A DNA stretch of 64,000 nucleotides from a virus: the IMG/VR virus record IMGVR_UViG_3300033146_005439, positions 1 to 64,000 of that record. One strand, given 5' to 3'. The position numbers were made by a program, and so were the translations under genes. The notes beneath the pieces are model-generated. The model did not search any database and had not been told where the DNA came from. It saw only the letters and a list, made by a program, of their open reading frames with translations. Positions within the stretch are counted from its first letter, which is position 1. The number at the start of each line of letters is the position of its first letter. Below, one piece after another: positions 8,495-18,943 of the stretch.

Positions 8495-8933
8495 TATCAT
8501 CTCCTTTAATATTATTTAAATGTTCTATACATCTATTATACACAAAAGACTTAATTAAATGTACATAACTTAAATACCAATCTGTATCCGCCCAATGTAC
8601 TGGCGCTGTTTTAATTACTAAATCTTGTAAAGCTAAAACTTGTGTATGACATAAGTTATACTGTTCATAAGTTCTTTCAGCACACATATTATTTGTATAA
8701 TTACGAGCTTTTAAATTATGAATTAAATATAAAATAGCTATATCTGAAGCTCTATTAGCTATATCATAACAATTTTCTGGCGTTTCCGGATATTTCTCTG
8801 ATGTAAATAAAGTGCTTTCTTTATAAGTATCCTTTAAATCTTTATAAAACATATTTGTAGGCAACACCGCCCTAGCAGAAGTACTCATAAACAGTACAAA
8901 TAGTATAACATAAGTTTGTTTTAAAATCAACAT
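8487..8933 (-). CDS. Second secreted protein with signal peptide (148 aa)
   Basis: MLILKQTYVILFVLFMSTSARA is a signal peptide with a good AxA-type cleavage site before VLP. The mature region has four cysteines (ENCYD, NNMCAE, NLCHTQ, NRCIEH) spaced along helices, similar in layout to the protein encoded just downstream. AAGGAGG precedes the ATG at 8933. The pair is probably made and exported together. It shows that the host has a Sec pathway and an extracytoplasmic compartment where these proteins act. Confidence 0.65.
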   Translation of the reverse strand: MLILKQTYVILFVLFMSTSARAVLPTNMFYKDLKDTYKESTLFTSEKYPETPENCYDIANRASDIAILYLIHNLKARNYTNNMCAERTYEQYNLCHTQVLALQDLVIKTAPVHWADTDWYLSYVHLIKSFVYNRCIEHLNNIKGDDNG

Positions 8934-9922
8934 AAATAAGCCTCCTTAGAAATAACTTCTTCAGTTTTAGGCCCAAAACCTAAATGAGTAACTTCAGGTA
9001 ATTTAGTTAATAAAGTATTTAAAGCTTCTTTATTTAAATAATTACAAAAATTCAAAAAAACATAATCTGGTTTTAAATCTCTTAAAGCATCTTTATATTG
9101 CCAAAAAGAAAAAGAAGCTACACGTCTAACACGTTTAGTATTAGTTGTATATTCAGTAGCTAATTTTAAATCTTCCCAAGAAGTTTCTACGCTGTCATCA
9201 TAAAAAGAACCTGAATAACCATTAGGTAAATTACCTACTCGTATAGGATAGGTTCTAATAGTCATAAAAACATTTCCTAAATAAGCTGGATGTAAGTCAC
9301 ATTCATTCAAAGCTCCTTGTACTGTAATATTTCTACTCGTACAATAAGGATAAAATTTAGAATTCAATGATAAACTATAACCTTGAGGTACTTCTAAAAA
9401 AGCAGTAAGACCTTTTTCTAAAGAAGTAGCTAAATCAAAATCTTGTATAAATTCTTGAAGTTCTTTTATGTCTTTAGCCACTTTAGCTGTTCTATTAATC
9501 TTACGAGCCAAAGCAGAACCTACCCCATTTTGTGTAGAAGAAATTTTTTGTATAGGACCTTTTTTTTCAAATAATATATCTTCATCACTTATAATTGTTG
9601 CATTTTTATGTATATACAAACGTTCTTTATCAATTTTATATAAATCTAGTTCTTTTAATAATATACTTGGATTAATAATAGATCCTGAAGGTAAATAAAT
9701 AAAAGAGTCGGGATTAATAATAGCTGAAACAGGTAGTTGTTTTACTACACATTTTTCACCATATAAATAGAAAGTGTGCCCTGCATTAGGCCCTGAAATA
9801 GAAACAGCAATATCTATAGTATAATGCTTACTTAAATAAGCAGCAAATAAACCTTTACCTGTAGAACCAAACTGACCATCAATTAAAATATTTAATTTTC
9901 CTTTTTTAAACAATGTATTCAC
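8927..9922 (-). CDS. purZ: PurZ-type adenylosuccinate synthetase (base Z pathway)
   Basis: PurZ joins dGMP and aspartate to give the precursor of 2-aminoadenine deoxynucleotide. The 331-residue length matches phage PurZ, not bacterial PurA (about 430). The P-loop reads GQFGSTGKG at residues 16-24: Ser20 stands where PurA has its catalytic Asp (GDEGKG), the substitution described for PurZ. Other matches are GPNAGHT (44-50), the VPQGYSLSLN region with YPYCTSRN (178-198), YPIRVGN, and TNTKRVRRV (261-268). These resemble, from memory, Vibrio phage phiVC8 PurZ. The called start is a GTG at 9922; a TTG at 9916 is spaced better from AGGTG. It overlaps pyrF by 17 bases. Confidence 0.9.
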   Translation of the reverse strand: MNTLFKKGKLNILIDGQFGSTGKGLFAAYLSKHYTIDIAVSISGPNAGHTFYLYGEKCVVKQLPVSAIINPDSFIYLPSGSIINPSILLKELDLYKIDKERLYIHKNATIISDEDILFEKKGPIQKISSTQNGVGSALARKINRTAKVAKDIKELQEFIQDFDLATSLEKGLTAFLEVPQGYSLSLNSKFYPYCTSRNITVQGALNECDLHPAYLGNVFMTIRTYPIRVGNLPNGYSGSFYDDSVETSWEDLKLATEYTTNTKRVRRVASFSFWQYKDALRDLKPDYVFLNFCNYLNKEALNTLLTKLPEVTHLGFGPKTEEVISKEAYLC

Positions 9923-11232: not shown

Positions 11233-11805
11233 TTAAGTCCATAAATACATTCTAATATGCATTAAACGTTTTAAATTATAAGTATCTTCTAAATCCCAAA
11301 AAGTTTCTAATCTATTTAATTCTTTATAAATTTTTAAATTTTTATCTGTTGATTCTAACCAATGCACATCATCGGTAGCTTCATATAAAAAGTCGATAAT
11401 TAAATCTCGTTTAGGTCTTTCATTTTTCCACCACCAATATAAATCTTCAATTTCAGAAGCTACACAAGCATGATATTTATCAGAATCCCAATTAATAGTT
11501 TCAAAACATTCTTCTTGTTCAACAAATCTTTCTAAAAACTTAAAATTCACATGTAACATCAATTCTGGTATATCATAATATTGTGTAGGATCAAGCCCTG
11601 TGGGACACTTACTATAATTATACTTAGGAATATACTTATGCTTAAATTCCCATAATTTTTGTTCAAAATAAAACTTTTTATAACTAAAATATTTTGGAAT
11701 TGTTTCTTTAAAAAAATATTGTATTTTATGATTCCGTTTATTATAAACATCTATCTCATGAAATTCCTGAAGTGTTCCAACTTTAGGGGTTTTTTTATAA
11801 ACCAT
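11233..11805 (-). CDS. Conserved phage protein of unknown function (190 aa)
   Basis: Rich in aromatic and charged residues. The segment ASEIEDLYWWWKNERPKRD (about residues 118-136) is typical of an uncharacterised family I have seen in large phages. It is probably all-helical. AGGAAATT precedes the ATG at 11805. It lies between the HNH gene and the yqeY-like gene. No function can be assigned. Confidence 0.6.
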   Translation of the reverse strand: MVYKKTPKVGTLQEFHEIDVYNKRNHKIQYFFKETIPKYFSYKKFYFEQKLWEFKHKYIPKYNYSKCPTGLDPTQYYDIPELMLHVNFKFLERFVEQEECFETINWDSDKYHACVASEIEDLYWWWKNERPKRDLIIDFLYEATDDVHWLESTDKNLKIYKELNRLETFWDLEDTYNLKRLMHIRMYLWT

Positions 11806-11819
11806 AATTTCCTAAACTC

Positions 11820-12065
11820 CTAGTTTTTATGTAACTTTTTATGACAATCTTCACATAAAGTTATAAGATTCTTCATTGGCTCATTATAAGGATACTTTTT
11901 TGTATATTTAGAATGATGCACACATAAAGTTTTATCAGTAGCCCCACAAGTTCTACATGCCCATTTATCTCTTTTAAATACTAATAATCTTTTCTTTTGC
12001 CATTTAGGATGCTTAAGAGCTCTAGCATATTCCGCTTTAGTTAATCTTTTATATTTTCTAGTCAT
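11820..12065 (-). CDS. HNH endonuclease (81 aa)
   Basis: A small free-standing HNH nuclease: CRTC at 37-40, catalytic His pair CVHH at 50-51, and CEDCHKKLH at 71-79, giving the two Cys pairs that hold zinc and the ββα-metal site. AAGGA precedes the ATG at 12065. It sits just downstream of a structured RNA (12083-12170) and of nrdJ, a gene type often targeted by homing nucleases. It could be a homing enzyme or a genome-packaging HNH; size and context favour homing. Confidence 0.85.
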   Translation of the reverse strand: MTRKYKRLTKAEYARALKHPKWQKKRLLVFKRDKWACRTCGATDKTLCVHHSKYTKKYPYNEPMKNLITLCEDCHKKLHKN

Positions 12066-12082
12066 AATGTATCCTTAAAAAT

Positions 12083-12170
12083 AGAGGGTTAGATGTAGCT
12101 TCGTATTATCAGCCTCGGGTAGACATCACGGCCAGGTTCAAATGGTAGCATCTAGTTTCCCTATCCCTCT
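12083..12170 (-). ncRNA. Unassigned structured RNA between nrdJ and the HNH gene
   Basis: The nrdJ-HNH gap is 110 bases in an otherwise gapless operon. Transcribed on the minus strand it folds as follows. Outer helix AGAGGG (12165-12170) pairs with CCCUCU (12083-12088). Next UAGAUG (12149-12154) pairs with CAUCUA (12090-12095). GCUA pairs with UGGC (12131-12134). CGUG pairs with UACG (12102-12105), enclosing GUC paired with GGC. Three of these helices use G-U pairs that would be A-C mismatches on the plus strand, so the minus strand is the RNA. The outer helix is followed by AUUUUU and then the HNH Shine-Dalgarno. It matches no riboswitch or ribozyme I know. Confidence 0.6.
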
Positions 12171-12175
12171 TAGCA

Positions 12176-14560
12176 TTAACCACACCTACTATAAGAACAA
12201 TTAATACATTTTATGCAACCCTCACTAAATATTAAAGACTCTTCTCCACAAGAAGGGCATTTATTTTCTCCAGCTTTTAAATTATAAGTTCCTATATATT
12301 TAGAAAGCACCCTAGAAATAGCTGTAGAAAAAGCAGTAATATTACCGTTACTCTTCTTTAATTGCTCTACTATATAACGTGGGAGAACACCATGCCTTAA
12401 ACCTAAACTTAAAAGTCTTGTCATAGCTTTCTGATCATCATCCATTAAAATACCAGCTAAATCTTTATACACAACAGGTGATCTACGAATAACTACTTCT
12501 AATTCATATTTTCCTCCACCTTGTTTACGTACTATACCATTCTTACAAGATTTTGGCAAGTATAAATCTTCAGTTGAACCACAAAAAATTTCATAAGGTT
12601 TATCATCTAATAAACCAATCAATACCGTCCACATTTCACCTTTAATAGAAGTATGTATAATATCACAAGGTATTTCTTTAGGTCTTTTAGGAGCACAATT
12701 AGGTATAATAGAAACAGGCCTATTATCATCAGCACATACTTTATCCGAACTTTTAGATAAAACAGATCCTATAATATCATTAGGTCTATACGTGGTGCAC
12801 CCTTTAAGACCTAATCTATGTGCTCTAATAAAAATATCTTTATATTCTTCAAAAGAATAATCTACAGGTACATTAATAGTTTTACTAATAGAAGCACAAA
12901 TATACTTTTGAAAAGCAGCTTGCATATTTAAATGAGCATTTACAGATAAATTATCAGTTGTTTCAAAATAATCAGGCACCTCAGAATCTTCACCAAACAT
13001 ATTTGTATAAAGTTCCCAAGAATAAGTTCTAACCGCTTCAACAGTTGTCTCTTCACTGGAACGTTTAACCTTTCTATCATATTCTATAGAAAAAATAGGT
13101 TCAACACCTCCAGATACATTATCCATTACAAGACTGGTAGTACCTGTAGGAGCTATAGTAAGATATCTACTATTACGTACCCCATGTTTAAGTATTGCCA
13201 TTTTTAATTCTTCAGGTAAATCTGATAAAAAAGGACTTTCTACAAATTGAGTTTTCTGAATAGCATCAAAAGTATCCCATTCTTTAAAAGGCCCTAAAAA
13301 TTTAGATAATTCATTACCTACAGCATAAGCTTCATTACGCATAACTTTAGCAATTTCCTCTGCTAAATCTACTGCCTCTAAAGAAGAGTATTTTAATTTA
13401 AGCATAGCAAACATATCACCAAGACCAGTTAAACCTAAACCTATTAAACGTTTTTGTCTAACTATTTCAGCTTGTTCTTTTAAAGGATAATAATTTTTAT
13501 CCAAAATTCTATCTAAAGCGGCCACCATAAAACGCACTACTTTTTTAAACCTTAAAAAATCAAAAGAAGCTTTTTTTGTAAAAGGATTATCTACAAACTG
13601 AGTTAAATTAATAGAACCTAAATTACAAGAAGCATGTGGTATAAGAGGTTCTTCACCACAAGGATTTGTAGCCAAAATATATTCAGACATCCATAAAGTA
13701 TTATAACGATTAATAGTATCTTCAAATAAAATTCCTGGTTCAGCAAAATCATAATTAGAACGAATAATAAGATCCCATAGTTCTCTAGCAGGTAAAGTTT
13801 CATAAACTTCTACAGGATATCCTTTATCTAACCAAGCCTTTATATTACCGTCCCATTCAATGTCATATTGCTCAAAAGAAGTATCTGGAAAAATCAAATC
13901 CCAATCCTTATCTTGTTTTAAAGCTTCTATAAAAGCATCAGAAATATAAACACTTAAATTAAAATTTTTATAAGGTTTATATTTATCAGGTAATTTATCG
14001 CCCTCTCTTTTACAAATAATAAAATCTTTAATTTCAGGATGCCATACACCTAATACTCCAATCTGAGCTCCGCGCCTATTTCCACCAGCTTCTATAGTAC
14101 CACAAGTAGTATCAAAAATACTCATAAAAGATAATACACCTGTAGATCTAGAACCAGTTGACTTTATTACAGAATTCTTAGGTCTTAAAATACTAAAAGA
14201 ATAACCTATACCACCACCAGCTTTCATCACAATAGCTGCTTGAGACACAGCATTCATAATAGATACCATAGAATCTTTTTTAATAGGCAGAACAAAACAA
14301 TTAGATAAAGTTTGGTTCTTTTTATTTGTGCCTAAAGCATACAAACCTCTTCCCGCAGTTAAAGCCAAATGATTACTAAAAATGTCATAATAAGTATCTT
14401 TATAATCATCACCTAATATATTTTTATATGCATTGTCCTCTTCATCAGAAATATTATCAAAAATACCAACCACAATACGCTTATAAAAATCTTCTTCCGA
14501 TTCTTCATTATTTCTATATTTCAACTCCCATATATCTCTACTAAATGCTGTTTTTATCAT
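12176..14560 (-). CDS. nrdJ: Class II (adenosylcobalamin-dependent) ribonucleotide reductase
   Basis: This 794-residue enzyme reduces ribonucleotides to deoxyribonucleotides without oxygen or a separate radical subunit. The features are: SNCFVLP with the active-site Cys, MKAGGGIGYSFS, STGVLSFMSIFD, NPCGEEPLIPHASCNLGSINL (the radical Cys region, about residues 299-319), and LTIAPTGTTS near residue 468. The C-terminus carries a zinc ribbon (CPSCGEE, then CIKCINCSYSRC), typical of NrdJ. GGAG lies eight bases before the ATG at 14560. It would supply dNTPs for replication and depends on host B12. No intron or intein interrupts it. Confidence 0.93.
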   Translation of the reverse strand: MIKTAFSRDIWELKYRNNEESEEDFYKRIVVGIFDNISDEEDNAYKNILGDDYKDTYYDIFSNHLALTAGRGLYALGTNKKNQTLSNCFVLPIKKDSMVSIMNAVSQAAIVMKAGGGIGYSFSILRPKNSVIKSTGSRSTGVLSFMSIFDTTCGTIEAGGNRRGAQIGVLGVWHPEIKDFIICKREGDKLPDKYKPYKNFNLSVYISDAFIEALKQDKDWDLIFPDTSFEQYDIEWDGNIKAWLDKGYPVEVYETLPARELWDLIIRSNYDFAEPGILFEDTINRYNTLWMSEYILATNPCGEEPLIPHASCNLGSINLTQFVDNPFTKKASFDFLRFKKVVRFMVAALDRILDKNYYPLKEQAEIVRQKRLIGLGLTGLGDMFAMLKLKYSSLEAVDLAEEIAKVMRNEAYAVGNELSKFLGPFKEWDTFDAIQKTQFVESPFLSDLPEELKMAILKHGVRNSRYLTIAPTGTTSLVMDNVSGGVEPIFSIEYDRKVKRSSEETTVEAVRTYSWELYTNMFGEDSEVPDYFETTDNLSVNAHLNMQAAFQKYICASISKTINVPVDYSFEEYKDIFIRAHRLGLKGCTTYRPNDIIGSVLSKSSDKVCADDNRPVSIIPNCAPKRPKEIPCDIIHTSIKGEMWTVLIGLLDDKPYEIFCGSTEDLYLPKSCKNGIVRKQGGGKYELEVVIRRSPVVYKDLAGILMDDDQKAMTRLLSLGLRHGVLPRYIVEQLKKSNGNITAFSTAISRVLSKYIGTYNLKAGENKCPSCGEESLIFSEGCIKCINCSYSRCG

Positions 14561-14571
14561 CAGATGCTCCT

Positions 14572-14673
14572 TTACACTTTATTTAACATACGCATAGCTA
14601 CTTGATAAGACCACCAATCCTTAATATTAAGTAGTGTTTGTATAATTAATTGTTTTTCACTAAGTTTCTGCAT
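14572..14673 (-). CDS. Very small ORF between dut and nrdJ (33 aa)
   Basis: The frame starts MQKLSEKQLIIQTLLNIKDW and ends VAMRMLNKV. The ATG comes one base after the dut stop, with AACAGGAG well placed upstream. The TAA overlaps the Shine-Dalgarno region of nrdJ (AAAGGAGC). Both ends fit the tight operon spacing, and without it the operon would have a 114-base gap. It is therefore probably a real short gene. It looks like a single amphipathic helix; the function is unknown. Confidence 0.55.
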   Translation of the reverse strand: MQKLSEKQLIIQTLLNIKDWWSYQVAMRMLNKV

Positions 14674-15724: not shown

Positions 15725-18700
15725 TTACTCCTGAAATGCTTTACATTTAGAACAAATTAATTTAGAACCATAATGATCATCTGGTACAAATTCCATAACG
15801 TTATGGCCACATTCCTCACCATCAATTTCATTACTACATTCACCTTTAAGCCAACAAGGACCAATGACAGCATCAGTATACATAGGCATTTGTTTAAAAT
15901 ACATATTAAAACCTTCATCTACAGAAGATGTTACAATTTTAGCTACTTCATCTACTTTATCTTTAGGGCATTCTACAACAATTTCATCATGAACACTTAA
16001 CACCAACTTAGCTTCATAAGGCAATTTTGCTAACTTATCCACACAAATAATCATGGCCTTCTTAATTGTGTCTGCATCACTGTTATGGACTATGATTCCA
16101 TTAGCTGTGAAATAATGTATTTTATCGCAAATTAAATCATATGTAGGCTCAACACCCTTGTAATCTAAGCTCACAACCTTTACAAAATCATAATCTAAAA
16201 ATGAAGACAAAAACTCTTTGGCCTTACCCTCAGGTAATTTTTCATAGAATTTTCTCCAACTTAAAAAAGAACACTTACCCAACTTAAATCTTCTTAACTG
16301 TGCCTTCTCATTAGATGTAAAATCAGTAAAATAAGTAGCAGTCTTCCTAAGTTCCCTTTCTATAAGTTTTGGTATAAACGAAGGAACTATACTACCATCA
16401 CCCGTTTTATAATTATACTTATTTGTCTCTAAAGCTTTATTTTTATAATCAACAGAAAAACCTATTAATTCTTTAAATACAGCATTATATCTTTTATGAA
16501 TCTGTAAACGATAAGTAGTTAAACTATTATCATTTTTATATTCTTTTAAGTTAGAATTAATACCTAAAGAAAATAATAAGTTTTGTACACCTGATGCTAA
16601 TTTTTTAGAAACAGTTGTATAAGAAGGACCACTATTTTTTGTAACACCACCATCTGTAGAAAACAAGCCATTCAATAAAGCACCTTTATTCTCTAAACTC
16701 TCAGTATAAAAATACTCTGGAATACTTTTATCTTTATGTATCACATAATCTAGGCCTATATGTTTTAAAAAACCTCTTATAACAACAGAGTATATATTAT
16801 AAGTTGGTAAATCTTCTCTGATTTCATCGTCCCTATGCTGTACACCTAACCTTACACTATACCCAAAAAGTTCTTCTATAAAAGCACAAAACTTGTCTGC
16901 CAACTCTCTTTGTTGTTTAGGACATACAAATCTGATCTGGTTATGCTGGTTATAACTACCATCTCCAATTAAACAACCTATAACAAAAGCTAATTTAGGG
17001 TTCATAGTAGCTGGGTAACTATATTCCTTATATGTTTCTCTCCAATGGCCCTTCTCATATTTATACCCAGATATATCTGTAGTTATACCATTTATAGGGG
17101 TCAAAGGCACCAACAAAAAATCCTCCTTTACATCTATATCTTTTACAACCTTATCCAACAATACTCCAGAATTATTACTTACAACTGGGATTTTATGATT
17201 TAAAGTGATGCCTAAAACTGAGCCATTAGACAACTTTAAATCATAAACTTCTTTTTTACCGGAATATACACCTAGGGCTGAGTCTAAACCAAAGCCTGTT
17301 TCCAATGTAACCTTTCTATCTATATAATTACCAATGTAACCTAACCCGTTTATATTACTATCAAAAACCAAACACCCTTGAATACGATGGTTTTTAGCCT
17401 TACGTTTAACTGCACCAACCACTTTTTTACGCATAGGGTCCGAATAATCAGGTATCTTATAAAAACGTCTTCTACCAGTAATAGTAGTACTACTATGTTC
17501 TTTAATAGCATTATTAGCTGATTCTTCTAACCAAGCAGCTAGTTTAGAATTAACCTTAAAATAACTATTAATAAGTTTTTGTGCTTCATCCTTAGATATA
17601 CCTAACCTTTTACCTAAACCTGTCGCAGAAATACCATAAGCTAAACCAAAAGAAATAGCTTTACTGGCTGTTCTCTGAGGTTTTTTTACTTCTTTATAAT
17701 CTACCTCAAAAATCCTTGAAGCATTAACTGTATGTAAGTCTAAATTATTATGATGAGTTTCAATAAAGTTTGGCTCTCCTGACATATCCCCCATAATAGC
17801 TAATTCTGCAGAATTTTGATCTACAGTAACTAAAGCCTTATCCTCACCAGCAATAAAACAACTTCTAAATTTTTGTTTAGCAGGTATATTCTGTAAATTA
17901 GGATTATTAGAACTCATTCTACCTGTAGAAACCATTTGTTTAAATTGAGTATGAAGTCGTCCTGTCTTTTCATGAATACGTTCTACAACAGCTTCACCAT
18001 AAGTAGTATACAATTTATATAATTTTCTATATTTTAAAATATCATCTATAACAGGATGGCCCGCATATCTTTTTAAAGCAGCTGCATCTGTTTTTTCTAA
18101 ACTTAAACCTAATTTGGTTAAAGCATCTAAAAGTTGTGCTGGACTATCTATATTAATAGACGCTACACCAAAAAGAGTTGTTTGATCTTGAGTTTTAGAT
18201 AAACGATTTTCTATATTAACTTTTAAAGCCTCACCCTCTTTCTCGGCCTCCTGCATAATAATGCGCCATTTTTCTATATCTAAAGTAATACCATTAAGTT
18301 CCATTTCAGCTAAAGGTTTAGTAAACTGCATTTCTAATTCAACAGCTTCATGTAAATTATATTCAGAAACTTTCTGTAATTGCATATTACGTATTATATC
18401 TAAAGTACAAACATCTGTAGCAGCATAAGATAACTGACTTTCTGTAAATTCTTGATAATAATCTTGAAAAGTACCTCTTGGTTCTTTATCCATTTCCATA
18501 TTTAAGTATTGTCTAACTAAAGCAGCTAAACTAAAACCTCGTTGTTTTACACCTAAATTTAACAATTGTTCTACCAACATAGTATCATAAATATTCTCAA
18601 TGTAGTAACCAAACTGAGCTTTTAATACTTTCATATCATAGTTACAATTCTGTAATATTTTTAAAATATTTTTATCTGAAAATAAGTCTTTAAACAAAGA

Positions 18701-18943
18701 ACCATGTATAGATACATCAGGTAAATCACTTCTAACATCAAATACAAAAGCTTTACCAGGGATACCTATCTGAATAAGGGTGGTTTGACAAGTAAAAGGA
18801 TCTAAACCTGTACCCTCAGTATCTAACTCCAAAACAGGGAAATTAGATAAATAAGACAAGACTCTACGAGCTTCCTCTTCTGTTTTTATATATTCAAAAG
18901 GTGGTGGTGGAACTGATACCCTATTAGCCGACATTATACTCAT
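15725..18943 (-). CDS. polA: Family A DNA polymerase (candidate DpoZ) interrupted by an intein
   Basis: The 1072-residue precursor has an N-terminal 3'-5' exonuclease (D41 and E43 in ELDTEG, NYD at 101-103, YAATD at 173-177) and a family A palm. Motif A is VTVDQNSAEL (D375, E380), motif B is R424, K428, F432 and Y436, and motif C is LSVHDE near 982-987. There is no 5'-3' exonuclease. Residues 524-954 are an intein; the spliced enzyme would be 641 aa, joined at HRIQG and SDADTIKKAM. Motif A differs from the usual DYSQIELR. The C-terminal tail has a possible zinc site (ECGHN, then CSKC). With purZ nearby it is a candidate for the DpoZ type that accepts dZTP. Confidence 0.93.
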   Translation of the reverse strand: MSIMSANRVSVPPPPFEYIKTEEEARRVLSYLSNFPVLELDTEGTGLDPFTCQTTLIQIGIPGKAFVFDVRSDLPDVSIHGSLFKDLFSDKNILKILQNCNYDMKVLKAQFGYYIENIYDTMLVEQLLNLGVKQRGFSLAALVRQYLNMEMDKEPRGTFQDYYQEFTESQLSYAATDVCTLDIIRNMQLQKVSEYNLHEAVELEMQFTKPLAEMELNGITLDIEKWRIIMQEAEKEGEALKVNIENRLSKTQDQTTLFGVASINIDSPAQLLDALTKLGLSLEKTDAAALKRYAGHPVIDDILKYRKLYKLYTTYGEAVVERIHEKTGRLHTQFKQMVSTGRMSSNNPNLQNIPAKQKFRSCFIAGEDKALVTVDQNSAELAIMGDMSGEPNFIETHHNNLDLHTVNASRIFEVDYKEVKKPQRTASKAISFGLAYGISATGLGKRLGISKDEAQKLINSYFKVNSKLAAWLEESANNAIKEHSSTTITGRRRFYKIPDYSDPMRKKVVGAVKRKAKNHRIQGCLVFDSNINGLGYIGNYIDRKVTLETGFGLDSALGVYSGKKEVYDLKLSNGSVLGITLNHKIPVVSNNSGVLLDKVVKDIDVKEDFLLVPLTPINGITTDISGYKYEKGHWRETYKEYSYPATMNPKLAFVIGCLIGDGSYNQHNQIRFVCPKQQRELADKFCAFIEELFGYSVRLGVQHRDDEIREDLPTYNIYSVVIRGFLKHIGLDYVIHKDKSIPEYFYTESLENKGALLNGLFSTDGGVTKNSGPSYTTVSKKLASGVQNLLFSLGINSNLKEYKNDNSLTTYRLQIHKRYNAVFKELIGFSVDYKNKALETNKYNYKTGDGSIVPSFIPKLIERELRKTATYFTDFTSNEKAQLRRFKLGKCSFLSWRKFYEKLPEGKAKEFLSSFLDYDFVKVVSLDYKGVEPTYDLICDKIHYFTANGIIVHNSDADTIKKAMIICVDKLAKLPYEAKLVLSVHDEIVVECPKDKVDEVAKIVTSSVDEGFNMYFKQMPMYTDAVIGPCWLKGECSNEIDGEECGHNVMEFVPDDHYGSKLICSKCKAFQE
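16082..17374 (-). mobile_element. Intein with LAGLIDADG homing endonuclease inside the DNA polymerase
   Basis: In-frame insertion of 431 residues, from Cys (codon 17372-17374) to the HN pair ending at 16082, with Ser as the first downstream extein residue. The N-terminal splicing block starts CLVFDSN, and the C-terminal block ends FTANGIIVHN. The two DOD endonuclease helices are visible as FVIGCLIGDGSY and LLNGLFSTDGG, so both splicing and homing parts look intact. The site is the conserved NxxIQGS(A/D)AD segment before motif C, a favoured insertion point in polymerase genes. Confidence 0.92.

What the first reader, a model, noticed from the sequence alone, without database searches (positions are those of the whole stretch)
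12066..12175. Structured RNA of no recognised class between nrdJ and an HNH gene
This is the largest gap inside the operon (110 bases). The minus-strand RNA has helices AGAGGG/CCCUCU, UAGAUG/CAUCUA, GCUA/UGGC, CGUG/UACG and GUC/GGC. Three contain G-U pairs that would be A-C mismatches in the opposite strand, so the folding direction agrees with transcription. The outer helix ends in AUUUUU, then AAGGA for the HNH gene. It could regulate HNH expression, protect or cut the mRNA, or be a new riboswitch, ribozyme or homing-associated RNA.
Basis: seen in the sequence. Interest (0 to 1): 0.65.

Follow-up and report, generated by a model that had tools for sequence, protein, structure and literature searches.

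The report
GC-rich spacer beside phage HNH gene
A 110-base gap between two phage genes is unusually rich in G and C, but it folds no better than shuffled sequence and has no known relatives, so it is probably spacer DNA that came in with a mobile nuclease gene rather than a new kind of RNA.

Summary
The gap at 12066-12175 (minus strand, between nrdJ and an 81-aa HNH gene) is real and every helix named is present letter for letter. The claim of a specific structured RNA is not supported. The minimum-energy fold is -22.6 kcal/mol on BOTH strands, and 10-25% of dinucleotide shuffles fold as well. There is no Rfam match. No homologue was found by blastn, exact core patterns or a covariance model, including in 13 other phage records of which nine are relatives, so covariation cannot be tested. 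In those relatives nrdJ is followed by unrelated sequence. What is unusual is composition: at 43% G+C against 29% for the genome, it is the only GC-rich spacer in the phage, and its G and C are balanced. Best reading: a lineage-specific spacer in a gene block (gap, HNH, orphan gene) that replaced other genes between nrdJ and the YqeY gene. At most it acts as a passive mRNA insulator, like the hairpin upstream of phage 25 seg43. A genuine orphan RNA element is not excluded (about 0.25).

The parts
12066..12175 (-). intergenic spacer nrdJ-HNH, 110 bp, 43% G+C
12083..12170 (-). 88-nt core enclosed by the outer inverted repeat AGAGGGATAG / CTAACCCTCT (9 of 10 pairs)
   Evidence: pairing probability of AGAGGG/CCCUCU about 0.9; shuffle P 0.10
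12102..12130 (-).
   Evidence: pairing probability 0.93-0.98
12089..12151 (-). 20-codon ORF MLPFEPGRDVYPRLIIRSYI, probably not coding
   Evidence: codon use and GC3 outside the phage's genes; 9% of shuffles have one as long; no tblastn match
12138..12176 (-). 12-codon ORF starting in the overlap UAAUG with the nrdJ stop, in frame with HNH but closed by UGA
   Evidence: UGA is a normal stop in this phage
11820..12065 (-). 81-aa HNH endonuclease gene; AAGGA ribosome-binding site at 12072-12076
   Evidence: Pfam PF01844, PHROG 119
12176..14560 (-). nrdJ, adenosylcobalamin-dependent ribonucleotide reductase, complete with its C-terminal Cys motif
   Evidence: Pfam PF02867; alignment
11233..11805 (-). 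orphan 190-aa gene downstream of HNH, part of the lineage-specific block
   Evidence: no homologue

Best explanation
The gap is a lineage-specific, GC-rich spacer belonging to a block (spacer, HNH gene, orphan 190-aa gene) that sits between nrdJ and the YqeY gene where the related phages have other genes. The HNH gene is found elsewhere in relatives, so it appears to have moved here, and the spacer came with it or was left at the junction. In the nrdJ-HNH mRNA it would form a moderately stable fold, as any sequence of this composition would. At most it separates translation of the HNH gene from nrdJ without covering the HNH ribosome-binding site. Shown: composition, lack of homologues, different genes at this place in relatives, unsequestered ribosome-binding site in the predicted fold. 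Inferred: arrival with the HNH block, and the passive role.
For: Relative L057 (polymerase 65% identical in its best segment) runs nrdJ - 25 aa - 63 aa - YqeY with no such gap; L051 and L053 have a gene directly after nrdJ; G001-G003 have an unrelated 107-108 bp gap. The HNH gene lies about 3 kb further downstream, after RNase HII, in G001-G003 at 64-65% identity. The 190-aa gene has no homologue. GC and G/C balance unlike any other spacer. Folding no better than shuffles. SD to AUG 47-82% unpaired.
Against: The HNH and 190-aa genes have ordinary phage composition, so a common foreign origin with the spacer is not visible. No source sequence was found. A GC-rich, G/C-balanced noncoding island in an AT-rich genome is also how real RNA genes look. 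No target-site duplication or insertion boundary was identified.
Confidence: 0.52

Rival explanations
1. A genuine lineage-specific structured RNA element in the mRNA, an outer stem closing an 88-nt multi-branched domain just upstream of the HNH ribosome-binding site, that dampens or insulates HNH translation or marks a processing site, as RNA structures do for T4-type homing endonucleases.
For: Only GC-rich and G/C-balanced spacer of the genome; outer stem and CGUG/UACG stem have high pairing probability; core fold at the 10th percentile of shuffles; the place next to an nrd gene and an HNH gene parallels mobE and seg43(25) (PMC2988022).
Against: Folding not significant; both strands fold equally; no homologue, so no covariation; ribosome-binding site not sequestered.
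Confidence: 0.25
2. The gap is a transcription-control point: a weak terminator for nrdJ or a promoter for HNH, as in relatives G001 and G003, where the nrdJ-downstream gap carries a TTGACA-17-TATTAT/TATGAT promoter inside a long hairpin.
For: Same place and nearly the same length (107-110 bp) in relatives; AUUUUU follows the outer stem.
Against: No terminator-like match in the gap and no promoter-like match there among the best 60 listed; the stem before the U run closes 75 nt rather than a short loop; sequence unrelated to the relatives' gap.
Confidence: 0.1
3. The gap encodes a very short peptide (20 aa at 12089-12151, or 12 aa coupled to the nrdJ stop).
For: AGGG 7 nt before the ATG; this phage does have mini-ORFs in operon gaps, e.g. 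a 33-codon ORF at 14572-14673.
Against: Codon score below all of 3000 real gene segments; 9 of 19 third positions G/C, reached by 0.12% of real segments; an equal ORF arises in 9% of shuffles; no match in phages.
Confidence: 0.06
4. A new small riboswitch or self-cleaving ribozyme class.
For: No Rfam class matches; multi-branched predicted fold.
Against: Single instance; no conserved core detectable; hammerhead core CUGANGA absent; no metabolite gene downstream (HNH and an orphan gene).
Confidence: 0.04

Closest known systems
Hairpin upstream of seg43(25), Aeromonas phage 25 (described in PMC2988022)
   Same: Structured segment directly 5' of a free-standing endonuclease gene's ribosome-binding site, not covering it; role unproven there as well.
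   Different: There a single hairpin of very high stability; here a branched fold no better than shuffles. seg43(25) is segD-like, not HNH.
mobE of T4 and of phage Aeh1: HNH homing endonuclease between or inside ribonucleotide reductase genes (PMC2988022, PMC3014915)
   Same: HNH gene beside a ribonucleotide reductase gene; intercistronic RNA upstream; UAAUG overlap at the end of the upstream gene.
   Different: Class I nrdA/nrdB there, class II nrdJ here; [quoted passage not shown] here the UAAUG starts only a 12-codon ORF; homing not tested.
Promoter-hairpin in the nrdJ-downstream gap of related phages G001 and G003
   Same: Same place, nearly same length.
   Different: Unrelated AT-rich sequence; 16-bp stem with three compensatory changes; strong sigma-70-like promoter.

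Membership tests
Any Rfam 15 family | match at or above the curated gathering score | tested here: not met
   none in the window; best match at E<=10 far below gathering scores
tRNA / tmRNA | ARAGORN-detectable cloverleaf | tested here: not met
Hammerhead ribozyme | core CUGANGA | tested here: not met
   absent on both strands of the gap
Conserved structured RNA (any) | compensatory changes among homologues | not testable with these tools
   no homologue found
Conserved structured RNA (any) | folding energy beyond dinucleotide shuffles | tested here: not met
   z -0.74; P 0.25 for the gap, 0.10 for the core
mobE-type hairpin-regulated endonuclease gene | ribosome-binding site sequestered in the RNA structure | tested here: not met
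   SD to AUG 47-82% unpaired in a 241-nt context
mobE-type hairpin-regulated endonuclease gene | HNH gene adjacent to a ribonucleotide reductase gene | tested here: met
mobE-type hairpin-regulated endonuclease gene | endonuclease promotes its own homing | not testable with these tools
   needs mixed infection; Pfam finds only the HNH domain in the 81-aa protein
Intrinsic terminator | GC-rich stem, short loop, U run | tested here: not met
   no match in the gap; the stem before the U run encloses 75 nt
Small protein gene | codon use like the phage's genes | tested here: not met

The most novel reading that the evidence does not exclude
An orphan, lineage-specific structured RNA of a new class lies between nrdJ and the HNH gene and regulates HNH expression, or is a homing-associated catalytic or regulatory RNA that travels with the HNH gene.
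Probability: 0.06. Interest if true: 0.6.

Novelty: new member of a known kind. Interest (0 to 1): 0.2.

Why it matters
If it is only a spacer of a mobile HNH block, it is one more case of endonuclease genes settling beside ribonucleotide reductase genes in phages. If an RNA function were shown, it would extend the T4-type control of homing endonucleases by RNA structure to a class II reductase operon in an unrelated phage group. It also shows that helices picked by eye and G-U direction arguments need shuffle and ensemble controls.

Tried and rejected
Homologues: blastn against phages and plasmids (nothing convincing); exact core patterns in IMG/VR and in GTDB genomes: none. Covariance model from the single sequence over 34 sources and over 13 other phage records: only the window itself, plus one chance-level match at E 0.45. 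Closer relatives through NrdJ, polymerase, HNH and the 190-aa gene: only HNH and the polymerase alignment gave any. A 12-nt match in L056 turned out to lie in a reading frame starting after RNase HII. Similarity of the gap to the nrdJ-downstream sequence of L057, L049 or L050: not above shuffles. TGA read as Trp would open a 33-codon frame across the gap in frame with HNH, but TGA ends 21 of 77 larger ORFs, so recoding is rejected. Degraded N-terminus of HNH: the frame agrees, but I saw no similarity to the extended N-terminus in relatives (by eye only). Hammerhead-like 'CUGAUAA...GAAG': core not met.

Full report
WHAT IS THERE. On the minus strand nrdJ (12176-14560) ends with its Cys-rich tail and TAA, followed by 110 bases and then an 81-aa HNH gene (11820-12065) with AAGGA as ribosome-binding site. 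The phage is a 111,382-base virus record with 29% G+C.

IS IT MORE THAN CHANCE? By folding, no. The gap folds to -22.6 kcal/mol, z = -0.74 against dinucleotide shuffles, with 47 of 200 as good. A separate run gave P = 0.25 for the gap and 0.10 for the 88-nt core; a perfect 6-bp outer helix appears in 13% of shuffles. The opposite strand also folds to -22.6, so the G-U argument for direction has no weight. In the ensemble the outer stem (about 0.9) and CGUG/UACG (about 0.95) are likely, UAGAUG/CAUCUA is at 0.11, and GCUA/UGGC and GUC/GGC are below 0.01. Among 57 windows of the same genome with matched G+C, 17.5% fold as well or better on the minus strand.

By composition, yes. The gap is 43% G+C and its core 47%; only 26 of 11,130 90-nt windows of the genome reach the core value, and no other spacer of 60 bp or more comes near (others run from 17 points below to 5 points above the genome mean). 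The strong G over C skew of the coding strand vanishes in the gap. Against GC-matched windows the plus-strand fold is exceptional (1.75%), which follows from this balance of G and C. Such islands can be RNA genes, foreign DNA or inverted repeats; composition alone does not decide.

KNOWN CLASSES. No Rfam family reaches its gathering score in the window or, at E <= 10, anything beyond noise in 12000-12250. No tRNA or tmRNA was found. The hammerhead core is absent.

RELATIVES. Close relatives are missing from IMG/VR: exact 8-residue patterns of NrdJ, of the polymerase and of the 190-aa protein gave none. HNH and a polymerase alignment led to nine contigs of related phages. The best, L057, has 65% polymerase identity in its best segment and runs nrdJ - 25 aa - 63 aa - YqeY; L051 and L053 have a gene directly after nrdJ. 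G001, G002 and G003 do have a gap of 107-108 bp there, but of unrelated AT-rich sequence: a TTGACA-17-TATTAT or TATGAT promoter lies within a 16-bp inverted repeat that keeps all pairs through three double changes between two sequences (with only two sequences, 71 of 500 shuffles do as well). Their gap is not similar to the window's. A covariance model from the window's sequence finds nothing in any of 13 other phage records. Covariation is therefore untestable.

WHERE IT CAME FROM. The HNH gene sits after RNase HII in G001-G003 (64-65% identity, more than the polymerase's 52-56%) but next to nrdJ here. The 190-aa gene that follows it has no homologue. Spacer, HNH and 190-aa gene together occupy the place between nrdJ and YqeY that small genes fill in L057. 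I therefore read the spacer as part of, or the seam of, a lineage-specific block around a mobile HNH gene. This is inference: the two genes have ordinary phage codon use, so a common foreign origin is not shown.

HOW IT WOULD WORK. On the polycistronic mRNA the spacer would fold moderately and its outer stem would end 6 nt before the AAGGA of the HNH gene, which stays 47-82% unpaired from SD to AUG. Sequestration as in Aeh1 mobE is thus not predicted; the nearest parallel is seg43(25), where a hairpin upstream leaves the site free and its effect is undetermined (PMC2988022; PMC3014915). Translation of a 20-codon ORF inside the gap is unlikely: its codons score below all of 3000 real segments.

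VERDICT. A real compositional oddity and an unproven RNA. Most likely a spacer of a mobile-gene block (0.52); a real RNA element 0.25; transcription control 0.10; peptide 0.06; new ribozyme or riboswitch 0.04.

Noticed in passing
8927-9922 (-): PurZ-like adenylosuccinate synthetase: PHROG 1211 '2-aminooxy adenylosuccinate synthetase', best phage match 42% to Ochrobactrum phage vB_OspP_OH, and GSTGKG at the site where PurA has Asp (the Asp-to-Ser point from general knowledge). Suggests 2-aminoadenine (Z) DNA; the rest of the Z pathway was not checked.
   Followed up: partly
15725-18943 (-): PolA-type DNA polymerase with an intein-like insert at about residues 524-954. G003 carries it at the same site, G001 and G002 lack it, and L056 and L057 seem to carry an insert at a different site.
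   Followed up: partly
L046 3311-3417 and L048 4199-4307 (-): Gap after nrdJ in related phages: sigma-70-like promoter nested in a 16-bp inverted repeat with three compensatory changes; operator, terminator or RNA hairpin.
   Followed up: partly
genome G000 95067-95155 and 97714-97854 (outside the window): Two spacers with very stable hairpins: a 21-bp stem at -27.3, and a terminator-like CCCCATGG hairpin with a T run followed by a TTGACT promoter-like site and a second hairpin, -40.2. Stronger structured-spacer candidates than the finding.
   Followed up: no
14572-14673 (-): 33-codon ORF MQKLSEKQLIIQTLLNIKDWWSYQVAMRMLNKV between dUTPase and nrdJ, filling the 114-bp gap.
   Followed up: no
12176-14560 (-) against L046 794-3310: NrdJ is 46% identical to the relatives' in its C-terminal third but about 30% in the rest, suggesting replacement or recombination of the catalytic part.
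   Followed up: no
L057 17152-17211: Near-perfect 17-bp hairpin AGTAGTACTGGCTTAGT/ACTAAGTCAGTACTAC directly before the YqeY gene of the nearest relative.
   Followed up: no
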